The notes under the pieces: model-generated
What the model was told of the DNA's origin: nothing
Databases searched by the model: none
Seen by the model: only the letters and a program-made list of their open reading frames with translations
Source of the DNA: Candidatus Siliceabacter maunaloa
Lineage (GTDB): Bacteria; Actinomycetota; Thermoleophilia; Solirubrobacterales; Solirubrobacteraceae
Length of the DNA stretch: 41,667 nt
NCBI GenBank assembly: GCA_024330185.1
Contig: JANDLV010000036.1
Span: 1-41,667 of the forward strand
Direction: 5' to 3'
Part shown: in pieces, positions 3,093 through 25,705 of the stretch
Layout: the number at the start of each line of letters is the position of its first letter
How positions within the stretch are numbered: the stretch's first letter is position 1
Position numbers and translations under genes: made by a program

Positions 3093-3794
3093 TCAGCCTG
3101 CGTCCACGCGCGCCTGCTCGATCCGGGCGGCGACGGTAACGGCCCAGGCGGCCTGCGGATGCTCGGTGCGCAGGAGGGCGACGGCGGCCGCGTGGTCGTA
3201 GGGGACGCGACGGTGCTGGACCTCGCCTCCGGGGCCCAGCAGGGCGTAGGCAGCGCGCGGGTCGTGGTCGAAGGGCATGCCCACGCTGCCGGGGTTGATG
3301 AGCTCGATGCCGTGCTGCGTGGTGGTGCGGCGGAAGGGCAGGTGGGTGTGGCCGAAGACCAGGCGGGTCTCGGTGACGCCCTCCAGCAGCTCGGCCTCGT
3401 CGTCGCCGGCCTGCGGGAGGAAAGAGCGCACGTCACTCACCGGCGAGCCGTGCCACGCGCGGGTGCCGCCGTCGATCACCGCGCTCTCGGGCAGCGCGGC
3501 CAGCTCGAGCACGAGGTGGTGGCCGAGGCCCGCGCGCGCGAAGGCGATGGCGCCCCGCACCGGATCCCCTTCCGGCGCATCGCCGGGCGCGTCGGTCCAG
3601 CGCTCGCCGTTGCCGCGGATCCACGTCGCGCCCTGGAGCTCGCGCAGTCGGGCGACGGTCTCGACCGGCCGCGGGCCGAACAGGGCGACGTCGCCGCCGA
3701 TCAGGTACCCCGTCGCGCCCTGATCGCGGGCGTCGGCCAGCACCGCCTCCAGGGCGGCGAGGTTGCCGTGCACGTCGTAGATCAGCGCGAGCAC
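3093..3794 (-). CDS. Calcineurin-like (YfcE/MJ0936-type) metallophosphoesterase
   Basis: About 233 residues from GTG 3794. The metal-site motifs of the family appear in order: IYDVHGNLAALEAVL (D-x-H), GGDVALFGPRP (GD), WIRGNGE (GNxE-like), AWHGSP and VFGHTHLPF (GHTH). This is the compact phosphodiesterase type related to YfcE/MJ0936 that hydrolyses phosphodiester bonds at a binuclear metal centre; the natural substrate is unknown. The start was chosen because the D-x-H motif begins just after it; the longer open frame upstream runs into the divergent GNAT gene. A plain VHGN replaces the more common DTHG. Confidence 0.85.
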   Translation of the reverse strand: MLALIYDVHGNLAALEAVLADARDQGATGYLIGGDVALFGPRPVETVARLRELQGATWIRGNGERWTDAPGDAPEGDPVRGAIAFARAGLGHHLVLELAALPESAVIDGGTRAWHGSPVSDVRSFLPQAGDDEAELLEGVTETRLVFGHTHLPFRRTTTQHGIELINPGSVGMPFDHDPRAAYALLGPGGEVQHRRVPYDHAAAVALLRTEHPQAAWAVTVAARIEQARVDAG

Positions 3795-6101: not shown

Positions 6102-6205
6102 GAGATGATTGTGGCCGATGCGCTGCGCCCGCATCGACGTGGGAGCGGGTTGCGAGAGGGCGTCGTGCTCGCCGAGCTCGCCCGCGTGGGAGGATGTGTC
6201 GGACA

Positions 6206-8431
6206 GTGAGCGCCACCGACCCCCTCACCGCGCAGGACCGCATCCGTGCCGTCGCGGCCATCGAGCCCGAGCCCGAGCCGCCGTCCGACCTCCACGACCC
6301 CTCCCTGTACACCAACCGCGAGCTGTCGTGGCTGGACTTCAACGACCGCGTCCTGCAGCTCGTGGAGGACCGCGACGCGCCGCTCATGGAGCGCGTGAAG
6401 TTCGCCGCGATCTGGACGAGCAACCTCGACGAGTTCTTCATGATCCGCGTCGCCGGCGTGCACGACCAGGTTGCGGCCGGTCTGCAGGACCGCGGCGCCG
6501 ACGGCCTCACGCCCTCGGAGGTCATCGACGCGGTGGCCGAGCGGGTCGCCGGCCAGTACGCGCGCCTGGCGCGCTGCCTGGAGCGCGAGCTGCGCCCCGA
6601 TCTGGCCGGGCACGACATCCACATCCTGCGCTTCGCCGAGGTGCCCGCCGCCAGGTGCGAGGAGCTCACGCAGCGCTTCCGCCGCCTGGTCTTCCCGGTG
6701 CTCACGCCACTGGCCGTGGGCCTGGGGCGGCCGTTCCCCTACATCTCCAACCTCTCGTTGAGCCTTGCCGTGCTGGTGCGCGATCCGCAGTCCAAGGTCA
6801 CCACCTTCGCGCGGGTCAAGGTGCCCAAGGAGCTGCTGGGCCGCCTGCACCCCGTCGAGGGGCTGGACAGGAGAACGCCGGGGGGCCCGCCGGAGGCAGC
6901 CACGCCGACGGCCTCCGGCACCCCCAGGGCCTTCGTCCTGCTCGAGGACCTCATCGCCGCCCACCTGGGCGACCTGTTCCCCGGCATGGAGATCCTCCAG
7001 CACGGCGCCTTCCGGGTGACCCGGGACGCCGACTTCGAGATCTCCGACGAGGCCGACGACCTCCTGCGCGCAGTGGAGGCCCAACTGCGCCGCCGGCGCT
7101 TCGGCGAGACGGTGCGCGTCGAGGTGGCCGCCGACATGGACCCGGTGCTGCGCACGGAGCTGACCCGCGCGCTCGGCGTCGAGGAGCGCCAGGTCTACGC
7201 CGTCGACGGCCTGGTCGACGGCGGCGACCTGTGGCAGGTCGTCAAGCTCCCCGGCTTCAACGAGCTGCGCGACCCGCCCTGGACGGCGGTCACCCAGCCG
7301 CGCCTGCAGGCCGGCTCGGACGGCCGTTGCGACCTCCTCGCCGAGATGCGCCGTGGCGACGTCCTCGTCCACCACCCCTACGACTCGTTCGCCACGTCGG
7401 TGGAGCGCTTTGTCGAGCAGGCGGTCGCCGACCCCGACGTGCTGGCCATCAAGATGACGGTGTACCGCACGTCGGACGACACGCCGCTCATCCCCGCGCT
7501 CATCCGCGCGACCGAGCGCGGCAAGCAGGCCGTGGCCCTCGTGGAGCTCAAGGCGCGCTTCGACGAGCAGGCCAACATCGGCTGGGCCCGCGCCCTGGAG
7601 CAGGCCGGGGTGCACGTGGTCTACGGCCATCCCGCGCTCAAGACCCACGCCAAGGCCATCCTGGTGGTGCGCAGGGAGGGCGACGGCGTGCGCCACTACG
7701 TCCATGTGGGCACGGGCAACTACCACCCGACCAACGCCCGCCTCTACACCGACCTGGGCCTGTTCACCTGTGACGGGGAGCTGGCCGCCGACGTGGCCGA
7801 CATGTTCAACTTCCTCACGGGCTTTGCCCGCGCGGGGCGCCACCGCAAGGTGCTCATGGCCCCAGAGACGCTGCGCGACGGGATCATCGAGGAGATCGAG
7901 CGCACCGCCCAAGCCGTCCGCGAGGGCCGCGAGGGGCGCATCCGCATGAAGCTCAACGCGCTGGTGGACCGCCGCTGCATCCGCGCGCTCTACCGCGCCT
8001 CCCAGGCCGGCGTCGAGATCGCACTCAACGTGCGCGGCATCTGCTGCCTGCGCACCGGCGTGCCCGGGATCAGCGAGACCATCACCGTGACCTCGGTGCT
8101 CGGACGCTTCCTCGAGCACACGCGCATCCTGTCCTTCGAGCGCGAGGGCGAGCAGCCGCGCGTGCTGTGCGGCTCGGCCGACCTGATGCCCCGCAACCTC
8201 GACGCCCGCGTCGAGCTCATGTTCCCCGTCGAGGACGACGCCCTGCGCGACGACGTGCTGGACACCCTCGACCGCTCGCTGGCCGACGACGTCGGCGCCT
8301 GGCGCATGGAGCCCGACGGCGCCTGGGCCAAGGTGGCGACGGGCGACGAGCCCCGTAGCGTGCACCGCGAGCTCATGCGCAAGCACGCCGCGCGCGCGCA
8401 GGCCGACAAGGAGCTGGCCCCTTCGACGTGA
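6206..8431 (+). CDS. ppk1: Polyphosphate kinase 1
   Basis: 741 residues. PPK1 reversibly transfers ATP gamma-phosphate to polyphosphate through a phosphohistidine. The four-domain layout is visible: N-terminal NRELSWLDFNDRVL, head domain, and two PLD-like catalytic domains. KTHAKAILVV (about residue 480) corresponds to the region of the autophosphorylated histidine, followed by HVGTGNYHPTNARLYTDLGL and later LNALVDRRCIRALYRASQAGVEI and CGSADLMPRNLDARVE. I chose GTG 6206 over ATG 6194 because GGGAGG at 6188-6193 sits 12 nt before the GTG but touches the ATG. A low-complexity insert around residues 220-242 (GLDRRTPGGPPEAATPTASG) interrupts the head domain. No exopolyphosphatase gene is adjacent. 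Confidence 0.96.
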   Translation: MSATDPLTAQDRIRAVAAIEPEPEPPSDLHDPSLYTNRELSWLDFNDRVLQLVEDRDAPLMERVKFAAIWTSNLDEFFMIRVAGVHDQVAAGLQDRGADGLTPSEVIDAVAERVAGQYARLARCLERELRPDLAGHDIHILRFAEVPAARCEELTQRFRRLVFPVLTPLAVGLGRPFPYISNLSLSLAVLVRDPQSKVTTFARVKVPKELLGRLHPVEGLDRRTPGGPPEAATPTASGTPRAFVLLEDLIAAHLGDLFPGMEILQHGAFRVTRDADFEISDEADDLLRAVEAQLRRRRFGETVRVEVAADMDPVLRTELTRALGVEERQVYAVDGLVDGGDLWQVVKLPGFNELRDPPWTAVTQPRLQAGSDGRCDLLAEMRRGDVLVHHPYDSFATSVERFVEQAVADPDVLAIKMTVYRTSDDTPLIPALIRATERGKQAVALVELKARFDEQANIGWARALEQAGVHVVYGHPALKTHAKAILVVRREGDGVRHYVHVGTGNYHPTNARLYTDLGLFTCDGELAADVADMFNFLTGFARAGRHRKVLMAPETLRDGIIEEIERTAQAVREGREGRIRMKLNALVDRRCIRALYRASQAGVEIALNVRGICCLRTGVPGISETITVTSVLGRFLEHTRILSFEREGEQPRVLCGSADLMPRNLDARVELMFPVEDDALRDDVLDTLDRSLADDVGAWRMEPDGAWAKVATGDEPRSVHRELMRKHAARAQADKELAPST

Positions 8432-15985: not shown

Positions 15986-17638
15986 CTAGGTGCCCACCGC
16001 CACGCCCAGCGGGTTGGGGTTGCCTTGCAGCACCTCGACCTGGAGCCGGTCGCGGGGCACGCGGAAGCGGGCGAGGGTCGCGGTGGGGGACTGGTCGACC
16101 ATCACCGAGGCCGGCCCGCGGTAGGTGCACAGCAGCTCTTCGGGGCGGCACTCGAGCACTCCGTAGCCACGGAAGGCGTGGTTGTTGAACTTGATGTGGG
16201 GGTTCTGGGTCTCCAGGCGCTCGGTGAGCAGCGCGGCGTCGCGCGCCTGGTCTCCCGGCAGGAAGCCCAGCGTCTCGGGCACCCCCAGCGAGGTGATCGA
16301 GCCCCCGACGAACTCGGTCGCCGCCGGCCTGCCGCCCACGCGCCCGGTGGTGGTGACCAGGCCGGCGAAGAACGTGTGGATGTCGCCGGTGATCGCTGTG
16401 ACGTTGGCGATCTCGTTGTCGGCGACGAACTGCATGAGCTCCGCCCGCTCGGCGGCGTAGCCGTCCCACTGGTCGGGGTTGATGGGGTTGCCCAGGGGGA
16501 GGTCCAGCGCCATGAGCATGATCTGGTTGGCCAGCACCTTCCAGGTGGCGTCCGAGGCGGCCAGTCGGTCCTTCAGCCACGCCTTCTGGCGCTCGCCCAG
16601 CATCGTACGCCCCGGTTGGAACGACTCGCCACACGGCACGGAGGACCGGTCCCCGCACGGCTGGTCGTCACGGTACTGGCGCGTGTCGAGCAGGAACAGC
16701 TCGGCATTGGCGCCCAGGCGCAGATGGCGGTAGAAGCGGTTGGGCTCGGGGCAGTCGACGCGTCCGAAGGGCATCCACTCGCGGTAGGCCAGGAAGGCGT
16801 TGCGTCGCCGGTCCAGGAAGCCGACGCGCGGATCCAGCGTGGCCTCGCCGGGTTGCTGCGCGGCCCAGTTGTCCTCGACCTCATGGTCGTCCATGATGGC
16901 CATGAAGGGCGCGGCGGCGTGCATGGCCTGCATATGAGGATCACTGCGGTAGAGCGCGTACTTGGCCCGGTACTCGGGCAGCGTCTGTACCTCGGCGTCG
17001 CCGTTGGCGCCGGTGGCGTCGCGGCGCGCGTCGGGGCCCTGGTAGAAGGTGCGCTCGTAGATGTAGTCGCCCAGCGAGACGATCAGGTCGAGGTCGGGCT
17101 CCCGGGCGAGGCCGGCGTGGGCGGTGTAGAAGCCCGCCTGGTAGTCCTGGCAGGAGAAGAAGCCGATGCGCACCGGCTCGTGCGAGTCGCGCGGGCGCGC
17201 GGTGACGAAGCGCCCGACCGGCGAGTCGGCCCCCCGGGTGGCGAAGCGGTAGAAGTACTGCTCGCCGGGGCGCAGGCCCTCGCCGACGCGGGCGCGCACC
17301 ACGTAGTCGCGGACCTCGGCGGCTCGCACCCGCTGCGTGTGCACGACGTCGCTGAAGCCCGGGTCGCGCGCGATCTCCAGGGCCAGGCGCCCCGAGCGCT
17401 CGATGCCGTCGACGCGGCTCCACAGCGTCACCGCCCGCTGCGTCGGGTGGCCGCTGGCCACGCCGTGACGAAACGCACCGCCCTGGACCAGCCGGTCGCG
17501 CGAGCGCTGCGGGGTCTTGGGACAGGCGGGCTCCTCGCAGGCCGCCTCCGCGCCGGGCACGCGGCCCAGCGCCAGCCCGCCGGCCCCCGCGAGGGCCCCG
17601 GCGACGACTGTGCGGCGGGAGAGGAGGTTCCCGTGCAA
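15986..17638 (-). CDS. phoD: PhoD-family alkaline phosphatase/phosphodiesterase, Tat-exported
   Basis: 550 residues from TTG 17638. The N-terminus LLSRRTVVAGALAGAGGLALG is a twin-arginine signal, as in all characterised PhoD enzymes, which fold with Ca/Fe cofactors before export. Family motifs in order: N-terminal PhoD_N domain (VASGHPTQRAVTLWSRVDG), GFFSCQDYQAGFYTAHAGL, SLGDYIYERTF, AIMDDHEVEDNWAAQQPG (about residue 253) and ITGDIHTFFAGLV (about 416). PhoD releases phosphate from phosphodiesters and monoesters. Together with ppk1 it implies phosphate scavenging and storage. The start is TTG with no evident ribosome binding site. TTGACG at 17676-17681 (minus strand) could be a -35, but the -10 is unclear. 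Confidence 0.93.
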   Translation of the reverse strand: MHGNLLSRRTVVAGALAGAGGLALGRVPGAEAACEEPACPKTPQRSRDRLVQGGAFRHGVASGHPTQRAVTLWSRVDGIERSGRLALEIARDPGFSDVVHTQRVRAAEVRDYVVRARVGEGLRPGEQYFYRFATRGADSPVGRFVTARPRDSHEPVRIGFFSCQDYQAGFYTAHAGLAREPDLDLIVSLGDYIYERTFYQGPDARRDATGANGDAEVQTLPEYRAKYALYRSDPHMQAMHAAAPFMAIMDDHEVEDNWAAQQPGEATLDPRVGFLDRRRNAFLAYREWMPFGRVDCPEPNRFYRHLRLGANAELFLLDTRQYRDDQPCGDRSSVPCGESFQPGRTMLGERQKAWLKDRLAASDATWKVLANQIMLMALDLPLGNPINPDQWDGYAAERAELMQFVADNEIANVTAITGDIHTFFAGLVTTTGRVGGRPAATEFVGGSITSLGVPETLGFLPGDQARDAALLTERLETQNPHIKFNNHAFRGYGVLECRPEELLCTYRGPASVMVDQSPTATLARFRVPRDRLQVEVLQGNPNPLGVAVGT

Positions 17639-17710
17639 GGAGCGCGGCAGTATGATCGGCGCCGCGAGAAAGGAACGTCAACGTTCGGTGAACCGGGAGG
17701 CCGTCCACGG

Positions 17711-18220
17711 TCAGGAGCCCTCACCGTGGGCGGCCGTCAGATCTGCGAGATCCTGTTGATCCTGAGCTCGTCCGGCCGCCCGCTTCATCGTGAGCAGATC
17801 GCCGAGGGAGCACACCATGATCGCGATGCCGTCCAGCTCGACCTCGATCGCCCGTTTTGCGAGCGTTGCATAGGCGTGGTCAGCTTCGATGCCGGAGACC
17901 CACTGCATGATGTCGATGTCCCCCGCCGCAGTTGACAGTCTGAAGTTGCCGCCAAGGGCCAGATCCTCCGGGCGGGTCGGGTCGTAGGGCATCTCGTCCT
18001 CAGCGAAGTCACCGACGCCCGCCTGGCGCGCGTCCAGCCGGCGCAGCAGCGCTGCGAGGCGCCTGAGGTTCTCGGCCGCGGGAGACGGGCAGATGTCGAG
18101 ATCCTTGGTGGCACGGACGACGCCGTGCGCGATCACGGCGAAGCCGCCGATGACGACGTAGTCGACGCGCTCCTCAGCCAGGAGCCGGAAGAGCGTGCGG
18201 GCGTCCAGCGGCGTGCTCAA
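17711..18220 (-). CDS. Nucleotidyltransferase-fold protein (AbiEii/DUF6036-like), possible toxin
   Basis: 169 residues from TTG 18220. The motif YVVIGGFAVIAHGVVRATKDLDI contains the GG and Asp-x-Asp of the DNA polymerase-beta nucleotidyltransferase fold, and GDIDIMQWV supplies the likely third acidic residue. Proteins of this class include the toxin halves of AbiEii/MenT-type systems and stand-alone enzymes. TTG was chosen because it overlaps the TGA of the upstream small gene (TTGA), giving a coupled two-gene unit; the longer open frame upstream is out of character. Whether it is toxic or modifies tRNA is inference from the family only. Confidence 0.75.
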   Translation of the reverse strand: MSTPLDARTLFRLLAEERVDYVVIGGFAVIAHGVVRATKDLDICPSPAAENLRRLAALLRRLDARQAGVGDFAEDEMPYDPTRPEDLALGGNFRLSTAAGDIDIMQWVSGIEADHAYATLAKRAIEVELDGIAIMVCSLGDLLTMKRAAGRAQDQQDLADLTAAHGEGS

Positions 18221-18408
18221 CGACGGTCCACGCGGGCAGCGCCCAGAAGGCGCTGGGCGAGCTCGGTGAGTGCGATGCCCTCGGCGAGATTGGCAGCCGG
18301 CCCTCGTCTGGCGTCGCGGCGCATCCGTGCGTGTCGCACGCGTTCGTTGTGCTTCAGGTCGCGAGCGCGGTCCTCCCGCGTGGGAAGCGGTCTGCCGTCG
18401 GTCGTCAC
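18217..18408 (-). CDS. Small basic protein coupled to the nucleotidyltransferase, antitoxin candidate
   Basis: 63 residues from GTG 18408: VTTDGRPLPTREDRARDLKHNERVRHARMRRDARRG, then PAANLAEGIALTELAQRLLGAARVDRR. It is very basic in the first half, with an amphipathic helix at the end. It precedes and overlaps the nucleotidyltransferase by 4 nt, the order and size expected for a partner or antitoxin. No named domain is recognised; the open frame continues 38 codons further upstream, but that part runs through a repeat region and is unlikely to be coding. Confidence 0.55.
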   Translation of the reverse strand: MTTDGRPLPTREDRARDLKHNERVRHARMRRDARRGPAANLAEGIALTELAQRLLGAARVDRR

Positions 18409-18485
18409 GGCCGGGATTGTTGCGCACGCCGAACCCGCGCGCCACCGTTGGGCAAGCCGTCCTGTCCTAGGTGGGGCAACCGTCC

Positions 18486-18523: not shown

Positions 18524-20758
18524 TCAGTCGACGACGCGCGTGGCGACCTCGCGGTCGGGCTCCACCGACCAGCGCCCGCGCACCCACCGCACGCGCGACC
18601 CGTCGGCCAGGCGCGCGGCGGCGCGGCCGCAGGCCGGCTCGCCCCACAACGTCGCCTCGAGCGGGCGCTCGTGCTCGGGCGTGTCGCCCAGGCCGCTTGC
18701 CACGTGGCCCTCGGGCAGCGTCACTACGACGGAGCCGGCGCGTACCCACACGGGGATGCGCTCCAGCGGCGCGGGGGCGACGACCTCGCGCCCGCCGGCG
18801 ACCTCGCGCCCGCTCCAGGTCTCGATCCAGCGCCCGCGCGGCAGGACGACCTCGCGCTCGCACGCGCCCTCCTCGACCACCGGCGCCACCCAGAGCGCCG
18901 GGCCGAAGCCGAACGCGTCGCCCACCGACCACGCGCCCGCGTCGTCGGGCTGGAGCAGCGACAGCGGGCGGACGATCGGCAGCCCGCTGCGCGCCGCCGT
19001 GGCCGCCGCCGCCCGGATGTAGGGTACGAGGCGCTCGTGCAGGAGGACGTAGGAGCGGTACAGGTCGAGCGTGCGGTAGTCGTAGGTCCACGGCTCCTGA
19101 CGCATGCGCGCGTGGGCGTGCATGAGCGGCGTGAAGCAGCCGTACTGGGCCCAGCGCACCAGCAGCTCGGCCGGGCAGCGCTCCACGAGGCGATGGCCCA
19201 GGTAGCCGCCGACGTCATGCGACCAGTTGGAGAAGCCCGTCGAGGCGGCGGAGATCCCGGCCGCGATGAGCACCTGCAGCGCCCACGGGTCGCTGGACTG
19301 GTCGCCGCCCCACAGGTGGCCCAGCGCCTGCTGGCCCGTCCATCCGCTGCGCCCGAAGAGCACGCCGCGGCCGGGGTGGACGTCGTCCAGCGCGCGCTGC
19401 ATCGCGCGCCGGTAGGCGGTCCCGTGCGCCCAGGCCGCGTTCGCGCCGGTGCGGCCGTCGGCGAACCGGACGTGCTCGGGCAGGTAGTAGCCCTCGCCGT
19501 CGTCGGCCTTGATCCCCTCCACGCCGCGCGCCAGCAGCGCGCGGGCCTGGCCGCACCACCAGGCCTCCGCGGGCGGGCTGGCCAGGTCGACCGGTGAGCC
19601 CGTCCCCATCCACCAGCGCGCGACGAACGGCTCGCCGCCGACGTCGCACAGGAAGTGGCCGTCGCGCTCCCCCTCGGCGTAGGTTGGCGCGGGCCGGGAG
19701 TGAAGCGCCTGGGAGCCCGGGTCGGGCGGGATCTGCCCCTCGCTGGAGTCGAGGTTGACCCACGGCGTGATCCACACCACCGTGCGCACCCCCTGCATCC
19801 GGAAGGCGGCCACCATCCCGTCGAAGTCGGGGAGCTGGTGGGGGTTGGGCTCCCAGGTGTTGTACTGCGTCTCCCAGGGGGAGTCGAGCACGATCGCGTC
19901 AAGCGGGATGCCCTCGCGCGCGCATCCGTGGACGTCGTCCTCCACGTCGTCGCGGTGCTCGTGGACGTCGCGGCTCTTCCAGAAGCCATAGCCCCACTCG
20001 GGCAGCACCGCGGGCCGGCCGACGTGGGCCAGCCAGCGGCGCAGGCGGGCGGTGGGGGAGGAGGCGGTGTACAGGACGACGCGCAGCGGGCCGGCGCTCG
20101 CTCGCGCCGAGAGGGTCGTGCGCTCGCCCAGCTCGACGCGGATCCCGTTGCCCGCGCCGTCCACCCAGGCCGACCAACCGTGGCTGGAGGCCAGCCAGGG
20201 CGCGGGCGCGCAGTCGCCCTGGGGGATCCCCCCGCCGGCCAGCAGGTCGGGCGGGCAGTCCGGGCCGGTGTAGCGGCGGTCGGCGCCGAGCTGGATCTCG
20301 CGCCCCGCGTGGTCCACGGACGGGTGGTGGCGCGCGCCCAGGCCGGCGAAGGCCTCGCCCGCCTCGCCATGCCAGTCCAGCGCGAGGCGCAGGGGATCGT
20401 CGTGCGCGCTCAGCTCCAGCGCGACGATCCCGGCCGTCGGCACGGTGACCCGCAGCCGCGCCTGGCGCCCGCCCTCCAGGCGCAGTCCCAGTTCGGCGCC
20501 GTCGGCCAGAAGCTCCACCGGCGTGGCGGAGGCCGCCACCTCGGGCGGCTCGCGGTCCTCGTGGGCGATCACACCCTCGGTGAGGGGGATGAGCTGGTCG
20601 TGCACCACGCCTTCCCACACCCGGACGCCACCCTCGCGCACGACGCGCCGGCCATCCCGGCGCACCGAGAAGGCGAAGGGCGCAAGGCGCACCCGGACCT
20701 CCAGCCCACCGCGGAGCAGGCGCAGCTCCCCAGCGGCCAGCGAGACGTCGGTGGGCAC
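18524..20758 (-). CDS. GH31 glycoside hydrolase (alpha-glucosidase/alpha-xylosidase type)
   Basis: 744 residues from GTG 20758, preceded by AAGGAG with 6-nt spacing. An N-terminal beta-sandwich (to about 240) leads to the (beta/alpha)8 barrel. The nucleophile Asp lies in GIKADDGEGYYLP (near residue 416; family pattern KxDxGE), and the acid/base Asp in FGRSGWTGQQALGHLWGGDQSSD (near 483). A C-terminal beta-sandwich begins around GDAFGFGPALWVAPVVEEG. GH31 retaining enzymes release terminal alpha-linked glucose or xylose. No signal peptide is visible, so it is likely cytoplasmic. It is divergent from the PHP-GT4/GT4/MGH1-like genes with a 147-nt intergenic region. The frame is open far upstream without support for coding there. 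Confidence 0.92.
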   Translation of the reverse strand: MPTDVSLAAGELRLLRGGLEVRVRLAPFAFSVRRDGRRVVREGGVRVWEGVVHDQLIPLTEGVIAHEDREPPEVAASATPVELLADGAELGLRLEGGRQARLRVTVPTAGIVALELSAHDDPLRLALDWHGEAGEAFAGLGARHHPSVDHAGREIQLGADRRYTGPDCPPDLLAGGGIPQGDCAPAPWLASSHGWSAWVDGAGNGIRVELGERTTLSARASAGPLRVVLYTASSPTARLRRWLAHVGRPAVLPEWGYGFWKSRDVHEHRDDVEDDVHGCAREGIPLDAIVLDSPWETQYNTWEPNPHQLPDFDGMVAAFRMQGVRTVVWITPWVNLDSSEGQIPPDPGSQALHSRPAPTYAEGERDGHFLCDVGGEPFVARWWMGTGSPVDLASPPAEAWWCGQARALLARGVEGIKADDGEGYYLPEHVRFADGRTGANAAWAHGTAYRRAMQRALDDVHPGRGVLFGRSGWTGQQALGHLWGGDQSSDPWALQVLIAAGISAASTGFSNWSHDVGGYLGHRLVERCPAELLVRWAQYGCFTPLMHAHARMRQEPWTYDYRTLDLYRSYVLLHERLVPYIRAAAATAARSGLPIVRPLSLLQPDDAGAWSVGDAFGFGPALWVAPVVEEGACEREVVLPRGRWIETWSGREVAGGREVVAPAPLERIPVWVRAGSVVVTLPEGHVASGLGDTPEHERPLEATLWGEPACGRAAARLADGSRVRWVRGRWSVEPDREVATRVVD

Positions 20759-20905
20759 GTCGCTCTCCTTCCACGCGGCTGTGGCCGCGCGGCATCGGTT
20801 CACCGGATGGTCACCGCCCGGCCACACCACGTTCACCAAAGGCGCGGATTTGCAGGGGAGACTGCATCGCGACAAGGCAAGAAGGAACCGAGTGAGGAGG
20901 CATCG

Positions 20906-23200
20906 ATGACTCCCAGGACGACCAGCCGGGTCGATCTCCACGTCCACTCCACGGCGTCGCAGCTCTCGAAGCTGGGCGTGCAGCGGGCCCTGGGCCTGCC
21001 CGAGTGCGCAACGCCGCCCGAGGAGGTCTACGCGCTGGCCAAGCGCCGCGGCATGGACTTCGTGACGATAACCGACCACGACACCATCGACGGGGCGCTG
21101 GAGCTGACAGACCGCTACGACGACGCGTTCGTCTCCGTCGAGCTGACCTGCGCGTTCCGCGCCGAGCCCCAGCATGTCCACGTGCTGTGCTGGGGCATCG
21201 ACCCAGACCAGTTCGCCCGCCTGCGCGAGCGCAGCGGCGACGTCGAGGCGGTGGCCGAGGAGCTGCGCGAGCAGGACATCGCCTGCGCGCTGGCCCACCC
21301 CTTCTACGCGGTCGAGGCCCCGCTGCTGCCCCGCCACCGCCGCCGCCTCGCGCGGCTGTTCCCGGTGTGGGAGACGCGCAACGGCTCGCGCGCCCGGGAG
21401 CTCAACGCCCCCGCCGCGGTCTACATCGAGACCCACGGCGGCACCGGCGTCGCGGGCAGCGACGACCACGCCGGCGTGGACATCGGGCGCACGTACACCG
21501 AGACGCCGCTGGCCTCCGACTGGCGCAGCTTCCTGGGCTGGGTGCACGACGGTCAGGCCACCGCGCGCGGTGACCAGGGCAGCGCGGCCAAGTGGGCCCA
21601 CAGCGCGATGGCCCTGGCCGCCAGGGTCTACGGCGGGGCGGGCGACGGCAGCGACGCCGCGCCCGAGCCGACCGCGGTGCTGAGCATGGTCGAGCGCGTC
21701 ATGCGCGAGGGCGACGCGCGGCGCGGTGCCATCGGCGCCGACCTGGGCCCCGACGACGCCCGCGCGCTGCTGCGCTCCTGGCTGAGCGCGGTCGAGCTCG
21801 ACCTCGACGAACGCGAGCTGCTGGACATGTTCCAGGACGAGAGCTTCCACCACGCCGCGCTCTTCCGCCGCGCGCGGCGCTGCCACGAGCGCAAGCTGTC
21901 CGGCGCCGTGGACGCGGCGCTGGCGGCCGCGGTGCAGGGCGGCGCCGCCCTCCCGGGTGCCGCGAGCGCCCTGTTCGACGCCTGCGTTGCCGCCATCCCC
22001 TACGCGCCCGCCGCGGCCTTCCTGGGCCGCGAGAAGGCCAAGCTGGTCACGCACGACGGGGAGCCCGTGCGCGTCGCCCTGGTGGCCGATGCGGTCGGGG
22101 GGATGCACGGCGTCACCCACACGCTGGACGAGCTGCGCGAGCGCGGGGTGCCCGGCTTCGACGTCGAGGTCGTCGGCACCGATCACAACGTCGACCGCCG
22201 CCTGAGCGCGGTGGCCGAGGTCGACATCCCCTTCTACAGCGGGCTCAAGGTCGGCGTGCCCTCGCTGCCGGCGGTGGTCGAGGCGCTGGCCGAGGGCCGC
22301 TACGACCTGGTGCACCTCTGCTCGCCCGGCCCGGCCGGGGTGGCCGCCGGGCTGGTCGCGCGGATCATGGACCTGCCGGTCATCGGCAGCTACCACACCG
22401 AGCTGGCCGTCTACACGGGCCTGCGCACCGCGGACCCGATGATGGAGGCGGCGGCCCGCGCGGCCATCGCGGCCTTCTACGGCCAGTGCGCGACGGTGCT
22501 CTCGCCCAGCCCCTCCTCCGACGCGGTGCTCGAGGGCATGGGCATCGCCCCGCAGCGCGTCGGGCGCTGGGACCGCGGGGTGGACGTCGGGCGCTTCTCG
22601 CCCGCGACGGGCGACCCGGCCTCGCTGCCGGGCGAGGTCAGCGTCCTCTACGTGGGGCGCCTGACGCGCGAGAAGGGCGCCGACCTGCTGGCCGACGCCT
22701 TCCTGGCCGCCCGGGAGCGCGAACCGCGCCTGCACCTCGTGCTGGCCGGCGGTGGGCCGGAGGAGGAGGCGCTGCGCGAGCGCCTGGGGGAGCACGCGAC
22801 GTTCCTGGGCTGGCTGGAGGGCGAGGCGCTGGCCCGGGCCTACGCGAGCGCCGACCTGTTCCTCTTCGCCAGCCGCACCGACACCTTCGGCCAGGTGCTG
22901 CTCGAGGCCCAGGCCTCGGGGACGCCGGTGATCGCGGTGGCCGAGGGCGGGCCGACCTCCATCGTCGAGGACGGCGTGACCGGCCGCCTGTGCCCGGCTG
23001 ACGCCGAAGCGCTGGCCGGCGCGGTGCTCGAGCTGGCGAGCGATGAGGCCCAGCGCGACCGTCTCGCCGCCGCGGCGTTGGACGCCGTGCGGGGGCGCAC
23101 CTGGGAGCGCGCGCTCGAGCAGCTCGCCGCGGGCTACCACCGGGCGCTGGCTGCCGGCGCCGACGTGCAGCGCGCGGAGGGCGTGGCCCGTGTCGCCTGA
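20906..23200 (+). CDS. PHP domain-GT4 glycosyltransferase fusion
   Basis: 764 residues from ATG 20906 (GAGGAGG at 20894-20900). The N-terminal PHP phosphoesterase domain has RVDLHVHSTAS (9-18), FVTITDHDTIDG (52-63), an E in SVELTC, CALAHPFYAV and AGSDDHAGVDIG, i.e. the four PHP metal-binding motifs. A helical linker (~240-380) follows, then a GT-B glycosyltransferase of the GT4 type (~390-760): ALVADAVGGMHGVTHTL, YVGRLTREKGADLLADAF, ADLFLFASRTDTFGQVLLEAQASGTPVIA (EX7E-type). The chain could couple glycosyl transfer to hydrolysis of a phosphate ester. The sugar and acceptor are unknown. It overlaps the next glycosyltransferase by 11 nt. Confidence 0.9.
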   Translation: MTPRTTSRVDLHVHSTASQLSKLGVQRALGLPECATPPEEVYALAKRRGMDFVTITDHDTIDGALELTDRYDDAFVSVELTCAFRAEPQHVHVLCWGIDPDQFARLRERSGDVEAVAEELREQDIACALAHPFYAVEAPLLPRHRRRLARLFPVWETRNGSRARELNAPAAVYIETHGGTGVAGSDDHAGVDIGRTYTETPLASDWRSFLGWVHDGQATARGDQGSAAKWAHSAMALAARVYGGAGDGSDAAPEPTAVLSMVERVMREGDARRGAIGADLGPDDARALLRSWLSAVELDLDERELLDMFQDESFHHAALFRRARRCHERKLSGAVDAALAAAVQGGAALPGAASALFDACVAAIPYAPAAAFLGREKAKLVTHDGEPVRVALVADAVGGMHGVTHTLDELRERGVPGFDVEVVGTDHNVDRRLSAVAEVDIPFYSGLKVGVPSLPAVVEALAEGRYDLVHLCSPGPAGVAAGLVARIMDLPVIGSYHTELAVYTGLRTADPMMEAAARAAIAAFYGQCATVLSPSPSSDAVLEGMGIAPQRVGRWDRGVDVGRFSPATGDPASLPGEVSVLYVGRLTREKGADLLADAFLAAREREPRLHLVLAGGGPEEEALRERLGEHATFLGWLEGEALARAYASADLFLFASRTDTFGQVLLEAQASGTPVIAVAEGGPTSIVEDGVTGRLCPADAEALAGAVLELASDEAQRDRLAAAALDAVRGRTWERALEQLAAGYHRALAAGADVQRAEGVARVA

Positions 23201-24368
23201 GGGCGCAACCGCCACCTCACCGCCTCCCCGCCGCGGCCACCTCCACCTCGTCGATCGCGCCGCCCCGGTGCAGCCGCTGCGGGTCGTCGACGTGGCCATG
23301 TTCTACGGGGAGCGCAGCGGTGGCATCCGCACCTACCTCGACGCGAAGCTGCGCTGGTCGCGCGGGGAGCGGGGGATCGACCACCACGTCGTCGTGCCCG
23401 GCCCGGCCGCCGCCGGCACCAAGGCCGCAGGCTCCGCCTCGGCTGGCACATGCCTGCGCGAGGTACGCAGCCTGCGCGTGGCCGCCGCCAACGGCTACCG
23501 GCTCCCGCTGGGGGCAGGGGCGCTGAGGCGGGAGCTCTGCGCGCTGGCCCCGGATGTGGTGCTGCTGCACGACCCGTTCTGGGCGCCGCTGGGCGTGGCC
23601 CGCACGGCGCACGCGCTGGGCGCGCAGGTGGTCGTCGTCCATCACGGCTCGGTCGCCCTCGACGCAGCGGGCCTGCCCGGCCCCGACCGCGCCTGGGCGC
23701 CGGTGCTGCGCCGCTGGATGCACCACGCCTATCGGGACGCCGACGCGGTCATGGCCGCACTGCCCACGTGCGACGACACGGGCCGGGAGGCCGACGTGCG
23801 CCTGCGCTTCGGCCTGCACCCCGCCTTCCGGCCCCGGGACGGGGTGCGCCGCGGCGACCACGTGCTCTACGTCGGGCGTCTCGCGCGCGAGAAGGGGGTC
23901 TTCGAGCTCCTGCACGCCGCCGCGCGCGCCGCCGACCCCTGGCCGCTGCGCCTGGTCGGCAGCGGTCCCGCGGAGACCCGCCTGCGTGCGCTGGCCGACC
24001 GCCTGGGCATCGCCCACCGCGTGCGCTGGCGCCCCTACGTCAGCGACCCGGTGCGCCTCGGGCACGCCTACCAGTCGGCTCGCGCGGTCGTGATGCCCGG
24101 CGCCCACGAGACCTTCGGCCTTGTCGGCTTCGAGGCCGCGGCCAGCGGGGCGAGCGTGGTGGCCTGCGACACGGCGCCCGCGACGGCGGTCATGGAGGGC
24201 CTTGCGCGCACCTACCGCCCCTACGACGTCGACGACCTGGCGGCGCAGATCGACGCCGCCCGCGCCGCGCCGCCCGATCTGATCGCGGCGCGCGCGCTGG
24301 CCACCCGCTCGACCTGGGACGCCGCCTTCGCCGCCGAGCTGGCGGACCTGCGTACGCTGAGCGTGTGA
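23190..24368 (+). CDS. GT4-family glycosyltransferase
   Basis: 392 residues from GTG 23190, which lies inside the end of the upstream gene with GGAGGG about 8 nt before it. The GT-B fold is clear. The N-terminal half has VVDVAMFYGERSGGIRTYLDAK and VVVVHHGSVAL; the C-terminal half has HVLYVGRLAREKGVFELLHAA, PLRLVGSGPAETRLRALADRLG and AVVMPGAHETFGLVGFEAAASGASVVACD, including the donor-binding EX7E (ETFGLVGFE). Substrates are not predictable. It overlaps the following hydrolase gene by 4 nt, so PHP-GT4, this enzyme and the hydrolase make one coupled operon. Confidence 0.9.
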   Translation: MSPEGATATSPPPRRGHLHLVDRAAPVQPLRVVDVAMFYGERSGGIRTYLDAKLRWSRGERGIDHHVVVPGPAAAGTKAAGSASAGTCLREVRSLRVAAANGYRLPLGAGALRRELCALAPDVVLLHDPFWAPLGVARTAHALGAQVVVVHHGSVALDAAGLPGPDRAWAPVLRRWMHHAYRDADAVMAALPTCDDTGREADVRLRFGLHPAFRPRDGVRRGDHVLYVGRLAREKGVFELLHAAARAADPWPLRLVGSGPAETRLRALADRLGIAHRVRWRPYVSDPVRLGHAYQSARAVVMPGAHETFGLVGFEAAASGASVVACDTAPATAVMEGLARTYRPYDVDDLAAQIDAARAAPPDLIAARALATRSTWDAAFAAELADLRTLSV

Positions 24369-25705
24369 GGTCGGGAGAGGGCGGCCGCGCCCGGGTGGAG
24401 AGCGACCCGTGCGCGCCGGCGGCCGGCAGGGATGTGGCGTCGTCCTGTGCCAGCCGAGGCGGCACTGGTGAAGCCCGCGACGCGGCCATCCTGGCCGCCG
24501 CCCACGCCACCCTCAAGGCCAACTGGCGCGAGGGCCGCCGGCGCACCGGCGAGCACTACGCGTTCACCTGCCCGGGCCCGCCGCGCTACCGCCACCTGTG
24601 GCACTGGGACTCCTGCTTCCACGCCATCGCCTGGCGGCACTTCGACCCTGCGCGGGCCCGCGCAGAGTTGCGCACGGTGCTGCGCGCCGGTCGCTCGGAC
24701 GGCTTCCTGCCCCACACCGTCTTCTGGGACAGCCCGGCCCGCTGGCGGCGCGCGCCGCTGTACGCCACGCGGCGGGTGCGCGGCGACTGGATGACGGCGA
24801 CCATCGGCCCGCCGCTGCTGCCCTTCGCCTGGGAGATCGTGGCGGCCGCCTCGCCCGACGACCCCGGCTTCGCCACCGAGGCGCTCGCGCCGCTGGCCCG
24901 CCACCTCGACTGGCTCGAGCACCACCGCGACCCCGACGGCGACGGGCTGCTCACCATCATCGCGCCCGACGAGAGCGGGCTCGACGACAGCCCGAAGTAC
25001 GACCCCGTCTTCGGCCGCCTGTCCCACGACCGCGCGGGCTACTTCTGGCTCATGGAGCGAAGCCGCCGCCTGGGCTGGGACTCTCACGCGATCATCGCTC
25101 GCCATCGGGAGCACGTCGAGGACGTCTGGGTCTCCGTCGCCTACGCGATGTCGTGCGCCGCGCTGGGCCGCCTGCGCGGCGAGGATCCCGACGGGCGCTA
25201 CACCACCCGTGCCGCGCGCACCGCCGCGGCCCTGGTCGACCGCTGCTGGGACGAGCGCCGCGGGCTGTTCCTCGACCTCGCGGGGCCGGGGGAGCGACCG
25301 GTGCCGGTCTCCACCTGGACCGCCCTCACCCCGCTGTGCCTGGGTGAGCTGATCCCCGCCGCCCTACGCACGCGCCTGGTCGAGGAGCACCTGCTCCATC
25401 CGCGCCGCTACGCCGCCCCCGTGGGCATTCCCAGCGTGGCCATGGACGAGCCGGCCTTCCGACCGGGCTTCGACCGCTGGCGGGCCTGGCGCGGCCCCTC
25501 CTGGATGAACACCGCCTGGCTGCTGGTGCCCCACATCGCCGCCGCGGGCCACGAGGCCGCCGCCCGGCGCATCGCCGACCGCCTGGCCGCCGCCGTCCTG
25601 CGTGAGGGCTTTCGTGAGTACTACGACCCCCGCCATGGCGGCGGCCTGGGCGTCCGCGGCTTCGGGTGGTCGACACTCGTGACTGACCTGCTTCTGCCAG
25701 GCTGA
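24365..25705 (+). CDS. MGH1-like (alpha/alpha)6-barrel glycoside hydrolase
   Basis: 446 residues from GTG 24365 (GTGA overlap with the previous stop). After a ~35-residue disordered start come motifs of the GH63/mannosylglycerate-hydrolase-like six-hairpin barrel: RYRHLWHWDSCFHAIAWRHFDP, GFLPHTVFWDS, DPDGDGLLTIIAPDESGLDDSPKYD, AYAMSCAALGRL, and the C-terminal WRGPSWMNTAWLL. Characterised relatives hydrolyse mannosylglycerate or glucosylglycerate, or trim glucose from oligosaccharides. Beside two glycosyltransferases and GH31, it probably turns over the glycoside that the operon makes (inference). No signal peptide. Confidence 0.85.
   Translation: MRSGEGGRARVESDPCAPAAGRDVASSCASRGGTGEARDAAILAAAHATLKANWREGRRRTGEHYAFTCPGPPRYRHLWHWDSCFHAIAWRHFDPARARAELRTVLRAGRSDGFLPHTVFWDSPARWRRAPLYATRRVRGDWMTATIGPPLLPFAWEIVAAASPDDPGFATEALAPLARHLDWLEHHRDPDGDGLLTIIAPDESGLDDSPKYDPVFGRLSHDRAGYFWLMERSRRLGWDSHAIIARHREHVEDVWVSVAYAMSCAALGRLRGEDPDGRYTTRAARTAAALVDRCWDERRGLFLDLAGPGERPVPVSTWTALTPLCLGELIPAALRTRLVEEHLLHPRRYAAPVGIPSVAMDEPAFRPGFDRWRAWRGPSWMNTAWLLVPHIAAAGHEAAARRIADRLAAAVLREGFREYYDPRHGGGLGVRGFGWSTLVTDLLLPG

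What the first reader, a model, noticed from the sequence alone, without database searches (positions are those of the whole stretch)
20906..25705. PHP phosphoesterase-GT4 fusion in a coupled glycoside operon facing GH31
One 764-residue chain joins four PHP metal motifs to a complete GT-B transferase. It is overlapped by a second GT4 (11 nt) and an MGH1-like hydrolase (4 nt), with GH31 divergent. PHP domains hydrolyse phosphate esters, so a transferase that yields a phosphorylated glycoside could have it dephosphorylated in cis, as separate synthase/phosphatase pairs do for glucosylglycerate and mannosylglycerate. The MGH1-like hydrolase relates to enzymes that cleave exactly such compounds. 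This makes a complete make-and-break unit for a glycoside solute plausible but unproven.
Basis: inference. Interest (0 to 1): 0.62.

Follow-up and report, generated by a model that had tools for sequence, protein, structure and literature searches.

The report
Phosphate-starvation enzyme fusing phosphoesterase and glycosyltransferase
A soil actinobacterium carries one long enzyme that joins a phosphate-removing domain to a sugar-adding domain behind a phosphate-starvation control site, and the best reading is that it helps swap phosphate-containing membrane lipids for sugar lipids when phosphate runs out, although this activity has not been measured.

Summary
ORF 20906-23200 (764 aa) is a PHP phosphoesterase joined to a GT4 transferase, followed by a second GT4 and an MGH1-like hydrolase, with GH31 divergent. 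The fusion is old: it recurs across Solirubrobacterales, other families of the class and a second lineage of the phylum. Its two halves have co-evolved (r = 0.94) and the PHP metal residues are kept in nearly all of 53 sequences. The compatible-solute reading is weakened. (1) The promoter carries four tandem 11-bp PHO-box repeats. The strict motif occurs only twice in the 3.79-Mb genome; the second copy precedes a phoD remnant. The motif recurs upstream of most close orthologues, and before ppk, phoD, phoB-like and pst genes. (2) The conserved partner across families is an N-deacetylase, not a glycoside hydrolase. Two unrelated kinds fill that role: DUF2334/GpgD-like and PIG-L. (3) Both GT4s match GlcNAc-phosphatidylglycerol synthase best, well below its cut-off. 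The best explanation is a Pho-regulon enzyme for phosphate-starvation glycolipid synthesis, a one-chain analogue of the PlcP + Agt pair. Pho control is well supported; lipid substrates are inferred. Mycothiol is excluded because MshC is absent.

The parts
20798..20841 (+). PHO box: four tandem 11-bp repeats GTTCACCGGAT|GGTCACCGCCC|GGCCACACCAC|GTTCACCAAAG in the GH31/PHP-GT4 intergenic region
   Evidence: Direct reading. The two-repeat pattern with up to 1 mismatch is unique in the window (expected 0.02). The strict form occurs twice in 3.79 Mb with 0 control matches. It is conserved upstream of 29/41 close orthologues.
20906..21550 (+). PHP phosphoesterase domain (residues 1-215) of the fusion
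   Evidence: Metal-ligand residues H12 H14 H58 E79 H92 H131 D186 H188 conserved; PHP fold
21551..22060 (+). Mostly helical linker (residues 216-385)
   Evidence: AF2 model; conserved in the order, no detectable match in distant fusions
22061..23200 (+). GT4 (GT-B) glycosyltransferase domain (residues 386-764)
   Evidence: PF00534/PF13439/PF13692; best NCBIfam model NF053787 sub-cutoff; fold nearest MshA/BshA
23190..24368 (+). Second GT4, GpgS-like
   Evidence: PF00534 2.8e-21; NF053787 4.2e-38, 131 of 480 bits
24365..25705 (+). MGH1-like (GH63-type) glycoside hydrolase; start uncertain
   Evidence: PF22422 2.1e-73; nearest solved structure T. thermophilus TTHA0978
18524..20758 (-). Divergent GH31 alpha-glycosidase; no obvious signal peptide
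   Evidence: PF01055 2.2e-58, PF21365
15986..17638 (-). PhoD-like alkaline phosphatase, Pho-regulon type neighbour
   Evidence: PF09423 4.3e-96
17676..17693 (-). Degenerate two-repeat PHO-box-like site GTTCACCGAACGTTGACG upstream of phoD
   Evidence: Direct reading; the genus relative L039 has GTTCACCGAACCGTCAC at 3744 (-), near the 5' end of its phoD

Best explanation
The fusion is a Pho-regulon enzyme for phosphorus-sparing glycolipid synthesis. When phosphate is scarce, a PhoB/PhoP-type regulator binds the four-repeat PHO box at 20798-20841 and turns on PHP-GT4, the second GT4 and the MGH1-like hydrolase, and perhaps the divergent GH31. The PHP domain hydrolyses a phosphate ester on or derived from a phospholipid (phosphatidate, or a head group in phospholipase-C fashion), freeing phosphate and a (di)acylglycerol-type acceptor. 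The attached retaining GT4 then adds a sugar, probably GlcNAc or glucose, to that acceptor. The second GT4 adds another sugar. In most relatives a neighbouring deacetylase (DUF2334 or PIG-L) would expose an amine, giving an amino-glycolipid; this genome has no DUF2334 gene. The hydrolases would recycle the alpha-glycosides. Shown: the fusion, the conserved PHP site, the PHO box and its regulon-wide recurrence, and the deacetylase partnership. Inferred: regulator binding, lipid acceptor, donor sugar, order of steps and the role of the hydrolases.
For: PHO box: unique in the window; the strict motif is found only here and before a PhoD_N remnant in 3.79 Mb, reversed control 0. Motif pair upstream of 29/41 close orthologues on the forward strand, 0/41 on the reverse, against a background of 0.0126 per 250 bp. 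In 10 relatives, 23 strict sites against 0 control sites, lying before PHP-GT4, ppk, phoD, phoB-like and pst genes where assignable. Consensus matches the published S. coelicolor PHO box GTTCACC in 11-nt repeats (PMC4415409). In family f3 the fusion lies inside a pst-phoU-ppx-fusion-ppk cluster, and in f20 next to phoD. Both GT4s match GlcNAc-PG synthase best; 53/53 fusions match that model. Deacetylase partners from two unrelated families: DUF2334 (NF053788 best) and PIG-L. Precedents: PlcP-agt pairs with Pho boxes (PMC4796936; PMC8231724), gpgSDF (PMC12713373) and hexSDF (PMC10128005). PHP and GT halves co-evolve, r = 0.94.
Against: No lipid activity of a PHP domain turned up in the papers searched; solved PHP relatives act on nucleotides, RNA or small phosphates. 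GT4 matches to GpgS are far below the 480-bit cut-off, and the nearest folds, MshA and BshA, use soluble acceptors. Only 2 of 32 distant orthologues show the box. GH31 and MGH1-like enzymes are unexplained by a lipid pathway except as recycling. This genome lacks DUF2334. No flippase gene was sought.
Confidence: 0.5

Rival explanations
1. Soluble-glycoside route, close to the first reader and to MshA: the GT4 makes a phosphorylated small glycoside (GlcNAc on inositol phosphate, glycerol phosphate or phosphoglycerate), the PHP domain removes the phosphate in cis, and a deacetylase follows. Pho control would make it a phosphate-recovering route to a solute or thiol precursor.
For: Best folds of the GT half are MshA and BshA; synthase/phosphatase pairs are common; PHP relatives hydrolyse phosphomonoesters; MGH1-like and GH31 cleave small alpha-glycosides.
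Against: Mycothiol is excluded: MshC is below cut-off in the own genome and 21 others. Hydrolases are not conserved with the fusion outside the order. PHO-box control is not expected for an osmolyte. Glucosylglycerate hydrolase cut-off not met.
Confidence: 0.25
2. Envelope-polymer switch: under phosphate starvation the operon builds a phosphate-free wall or capsule glycan (teichuronic-acid style), and PHP acts as a regulatory or trimming phosphatase like CpsB/YwqE.
For: Weaker matches to TuaC, EpsE and PEP-CTERM glycosyltransferases; PHP phosphatases occur in capsule loci (PMC2364625); Pho control.
Against: No polymerase, flippase or initiating transferase noticed among the recurrent neighbours; GpgS is a better match than these models in P0001; deacetylase is the recurrent partner.
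Confidence: 0.12
3. Glucan side route: fusion plus GH31 and MGH1 handle maltose/trehalose-type phosphates (GlgM-like GT4 giving a phosphorylated disaccharide).
For: f6 loci have a trehalose-phosphatase family gene and a GH57-like gene next door; GT4 includes GlgM.
Against: Those genes lie beyond a PIG-L gene, the phosphatase gene on the opposite strand, and were found only in f6; the GlgM-type model is weak (46 bits); does not explain the PHO box or deacetylases.
Confidence: 0.05

Closest known systems
PlcP + Agt (GT4) phosphate-starvation lipid remodelling pair
   Same: Metallophosphoesterase paired with a GT4, Pho-box controlled, genes adjacent (PMC4796936, PMC8231724)
   Different: Here both activities are on one chain, the phosphoesterase is of the PHP fold, and activity is untested
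gpgSDF of Pseudomonas aeruginosa (GlcN-phosphatidylglycerol) and hexSDF of Clostridioides difficile
   Same: Glycosyltransferase followed by an N-deacetylase; NCBIfam GpgS and GpgD models are the best matches
   Different: Scores well below equivalog cut-offs; PHP domain has no counterpart; deacetylase absent in this genome; no flippase identified
MshA and BshA GT4 enzymes with PIG-L deacetylases (mycothiol, bacillithiol)
   Same: GT4 fold match and, in f6/f78, a PIG-L partner; the MshA product needs a phosphatase
   Different: No MshC in 22 genomes checked; PHO-box control; DUF2334 in other families
Glucosylglycerate/mannosylglycerate synthase-phosphatase pairs and MGH1 hydrolase
   Same: MGH1-like hydrolase fold (PF22422), alpha-glycoside logic
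   Different: Different transferase families, GgH cut-off not met (136 of 550 bits), hydrolase not conserved with the fusion

Membership tests
PHP phosphoesterases | Metal-binding motifs and PHP fold | tested here: met
   Ligand residues conserved in 51-53 of 53 (H92 in 49 of 53); Foldseek to RNase AM, TM0559, BAD_1165, Cv1693; Pfam PHP 21.0 bits, just below its 26.4 cut-off
GT4 glycosyltransferases | GT-B fold with Glyco_transf_4 and Glycos_transf_1 domains | tested here: met
GlcNAc-phosphatidylglycerol synthase GpgS (NF053787) | Score above the 480-bit equivalog cut-off | tested here: not met
   127 bits (fusion) and 131 bits (second GT4), though the best model for both window proteins
GlcNAc-PG deacetylase GpgD (NF053788) | Score above the 280-bit cut-off, gene in the operon | tested here: not met
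   90-98 bits for relatives' DUF2334; no DUF2334 in the own genome
Pho regulon | PHO box of 11-nt direct repeats upstream | tested here: met
Pho regulon | Induction at low phosphate | not testable with these tools
   Needs expression data
Glucosylglycerate hydrolase (NF047898) | Score above the 550-bit cut-off | tested here: not met
   136 bits
Mycothiol pathway | MshC ligase in the genome | tested here: not met
   No match over cut-off in own genome or 21 relatives; the control search is over cut-off in one of 14 genomes
PlcP-Agt type lipid remodelling | Phosphoesterase releases diacylglycerol that the GT4 glycosylates | not testable with these tools
   Requires enzyme assay or lipidomics

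The most novel reading that the evidence does not exclude
A single-chain enzyme that converts phospholipid to glycolipid under phosphate starvation: a PHP domain with phospholipase-C or phosphatidate-phosphatase activity hands its lipid to an attached GT4. It would be a PHP-based counterpart of PlcP plus Agt, spread over at least two deep actinobacterial lineages.
Probability: 0.35. Interest if true: 0.78.

Novelty: new variant of a known kind. Interest (0 to 1): 0.6.

Why it matters
If true, it would give Solirubrobacterales and related actinobacteria a genetic route for phosphate-starvation lipid remodelling, and would add lipid head-group hydrolysis to the known roles of PHP domains. It also gives a testable function to a conserved fusion for which no description was found in the papers searched, and a usable PHO-box consensus for these bacteria.

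Tried and rejected
Mycothiol (PHP as the missing MshA2 phosphatase): rejected, no MshC. Recent or artefactual fusion: rejected, congruent halves and many genomes. Degenerate PHP domain: rejected; of 53 fusions one paralogue, L126, has lost most motifs, while L096 lacks H92 and H188 and L099 and L100 lack H92. Own-genome DUF2334 deacetylase elsewhere: none found. Plasmid copies of the PHP domain: none. PHROGs gave only generic GT hits. A PHP-only AlphaFold model was poor (pLDDT 67) but still matched PHP folds; the full model was good (90). Papers describing a PHP-glycosyltransferase fusion, or PHP with phosphate starvation and phospholipids: none found in the library.

Full report
What is there. 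The 764-aa chain at 20906-23200 has an N-terminal PHP domain, a helical linker and a complete GT4. A second GT4 (23190-24368) and an MGH1-like hydrolase (24365-25705) follow; GH31 lies divergent, with its 5' end near 20758. The 11-nt overlap is supported by the genus relative L039, whose second GT4 aligns from residue 2 and overlaps the fusion; the 4-nt overlap depends on which GTG is taken.

The PHP half is a real, kept active site. Pfam PHP falls just short of its cut-off, but the motifs are present, and across 53 fusions down to about 30% identity H12, H14, D57, E79 and D187 are invariant and H58, H131, D186 and H188 nearly so. The fold matches RNase AM, TM0559, BAD_1165 and Cv1693, from a model of moderate quality. 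The GT half matches MshA and BshA folds best.

The fusion is old. It is in 48 of 101 genomes of the close circle, 97 of 299 genomes of the class and 18 of 396 of the phylum, the last including a lineage outside the class (f20). Of 55 loci fetched and scanned, 51 have clear PHP and GT4 matches in one frame; L121 has a partial GT match, and L127, L142 and L159 show none, the first two being cut by a contig end. Trees of the two halves agree on most families, with distance correlation 0.94. A single old fusion inherited largely vertically is the simplest reading.

The neighbours that matter. Within the order, GH31 usually lies divergent and the second GT4, a DUF2334 protein and the MGH1-like gene often follow. 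Across families GH31 and MGH1 drop out, while an N-deacetylase stays: DUF2334 downstream of 9/13 f1, 5/9 f5 and 2/2 f9 fusions, and PIG-L downstream of 8/8 f6 and 3/10 f78 fusions. In L147, L150 and L151 DUF2334 follows the fusion directly, without the second GT4. Two unrelated deacetylase families in the same slot point to an N-acetylhexosamine product. The families f3, f8 and f20 have no such partner. The window's own genome lacks DUF2334, so in this lineage the deacetylation step is missing or done otherwise.

The control site. The 147-bp divergent region holds four 11-bp direct repeats at 20798-20841, the layout and GTTCACC core published for the S. coelicolor PHO box (PMC4415409). The two-repeat pattern is unique in the window (expected 0.02). 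In the 3.79-Mb genome the strict form occurs twice, here and before a truncated PhoD_N frame, with no match for the reversed control pattern. A looser form is upstream of 29 of 41 close orthologues in the same orientation, mostly at -70 to -116, against 0.0126 expected per 250-bp strand; relatedness means these are not 41 independent cases. In ten relatives 23 strict sites were found against none for the control; those I could assign lie before the fusion (six), ppk, phoD, phoB-like regulators and a pst gene, and about ten remain unassigned. In f3 the fusion is inside a pst-phoU-ppx-ppk cluster. Ppk (6194-8431) and PhoD (15986-17638) are also in the window. Distant families mostly lack the recognisable box (2 of 32).

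Mechanism. A metallophosphoesterase plus a GT4 under PHO control is the known PlcP-Agt lipid-remodelling arrangement (PMC4796936; PMC8231724). A GT plus an N-deacetylase is the gpgSD/hexSD amino-glycolipid arrangement (PMC12713373; PMC10128005), and NF053787 is the one model matched by all 53 fusions. I therefore favour phosphate-starvation glycolipid synthesis, with PHP supplying the dephosphorylated acceptor. The substrates are inferred; the nearest GT folds act on soluble acceptors, so a soluble-glycoside route stays open. Mycothiol is excluded by the absence of MshC in 22 genomes.

Verdict. Observation confirmed. The compatible-solute reading is weakened by context and promoter; the idea that PHP and GT4 work on one substrate in sequence survives in another form. 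New variant of a known kind, conditional on assay.

Noticed in passing
window 6194-8431 (+): Polyphosphate kinase (PF17941, PF13090, PF02503), another phosphate-metabolism gene in the same window.
   Followed up: partly
L164 (G000:C81 around 11234): The only other strict PHO-box pair in the genome stands before a truncated PhoD_N reading frame, apparently a pseudogene with an intact box.
   Followed up: partly
L061 9177-10272 (Svornostia abyssi CP088295): GT half of the fusion is split over two frames in a chromosome-level assembly: a frameshift or a sequencing error.
   Followed up: no
L062: Record titled Bifidobacterium breve carries a clearly Solirubrobacteraceae-like locus; the public label is probably wrong.
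   Followed up: no
L126 (f78 paralogue): Fusion copy with most PHP metal motifs replaced, perhaps a structural or regulatory PHP domain.
   Followed up: no
L089 and L093, f6 loci: Trehalose-phosphatase family gene and GH57-like gene recur beyond the PIG-L gene.
   Followed up: no
L050 14006-14872: Tocopherol-cyclase-like domain protein downstream of the MGH1 gene, also clustered in L056 and L066.
   Followed up: no
window 17711-18445 (-): DUF6036 nucleotidyltransferase-like frame next to the GH31 gene.
   Followed up: no
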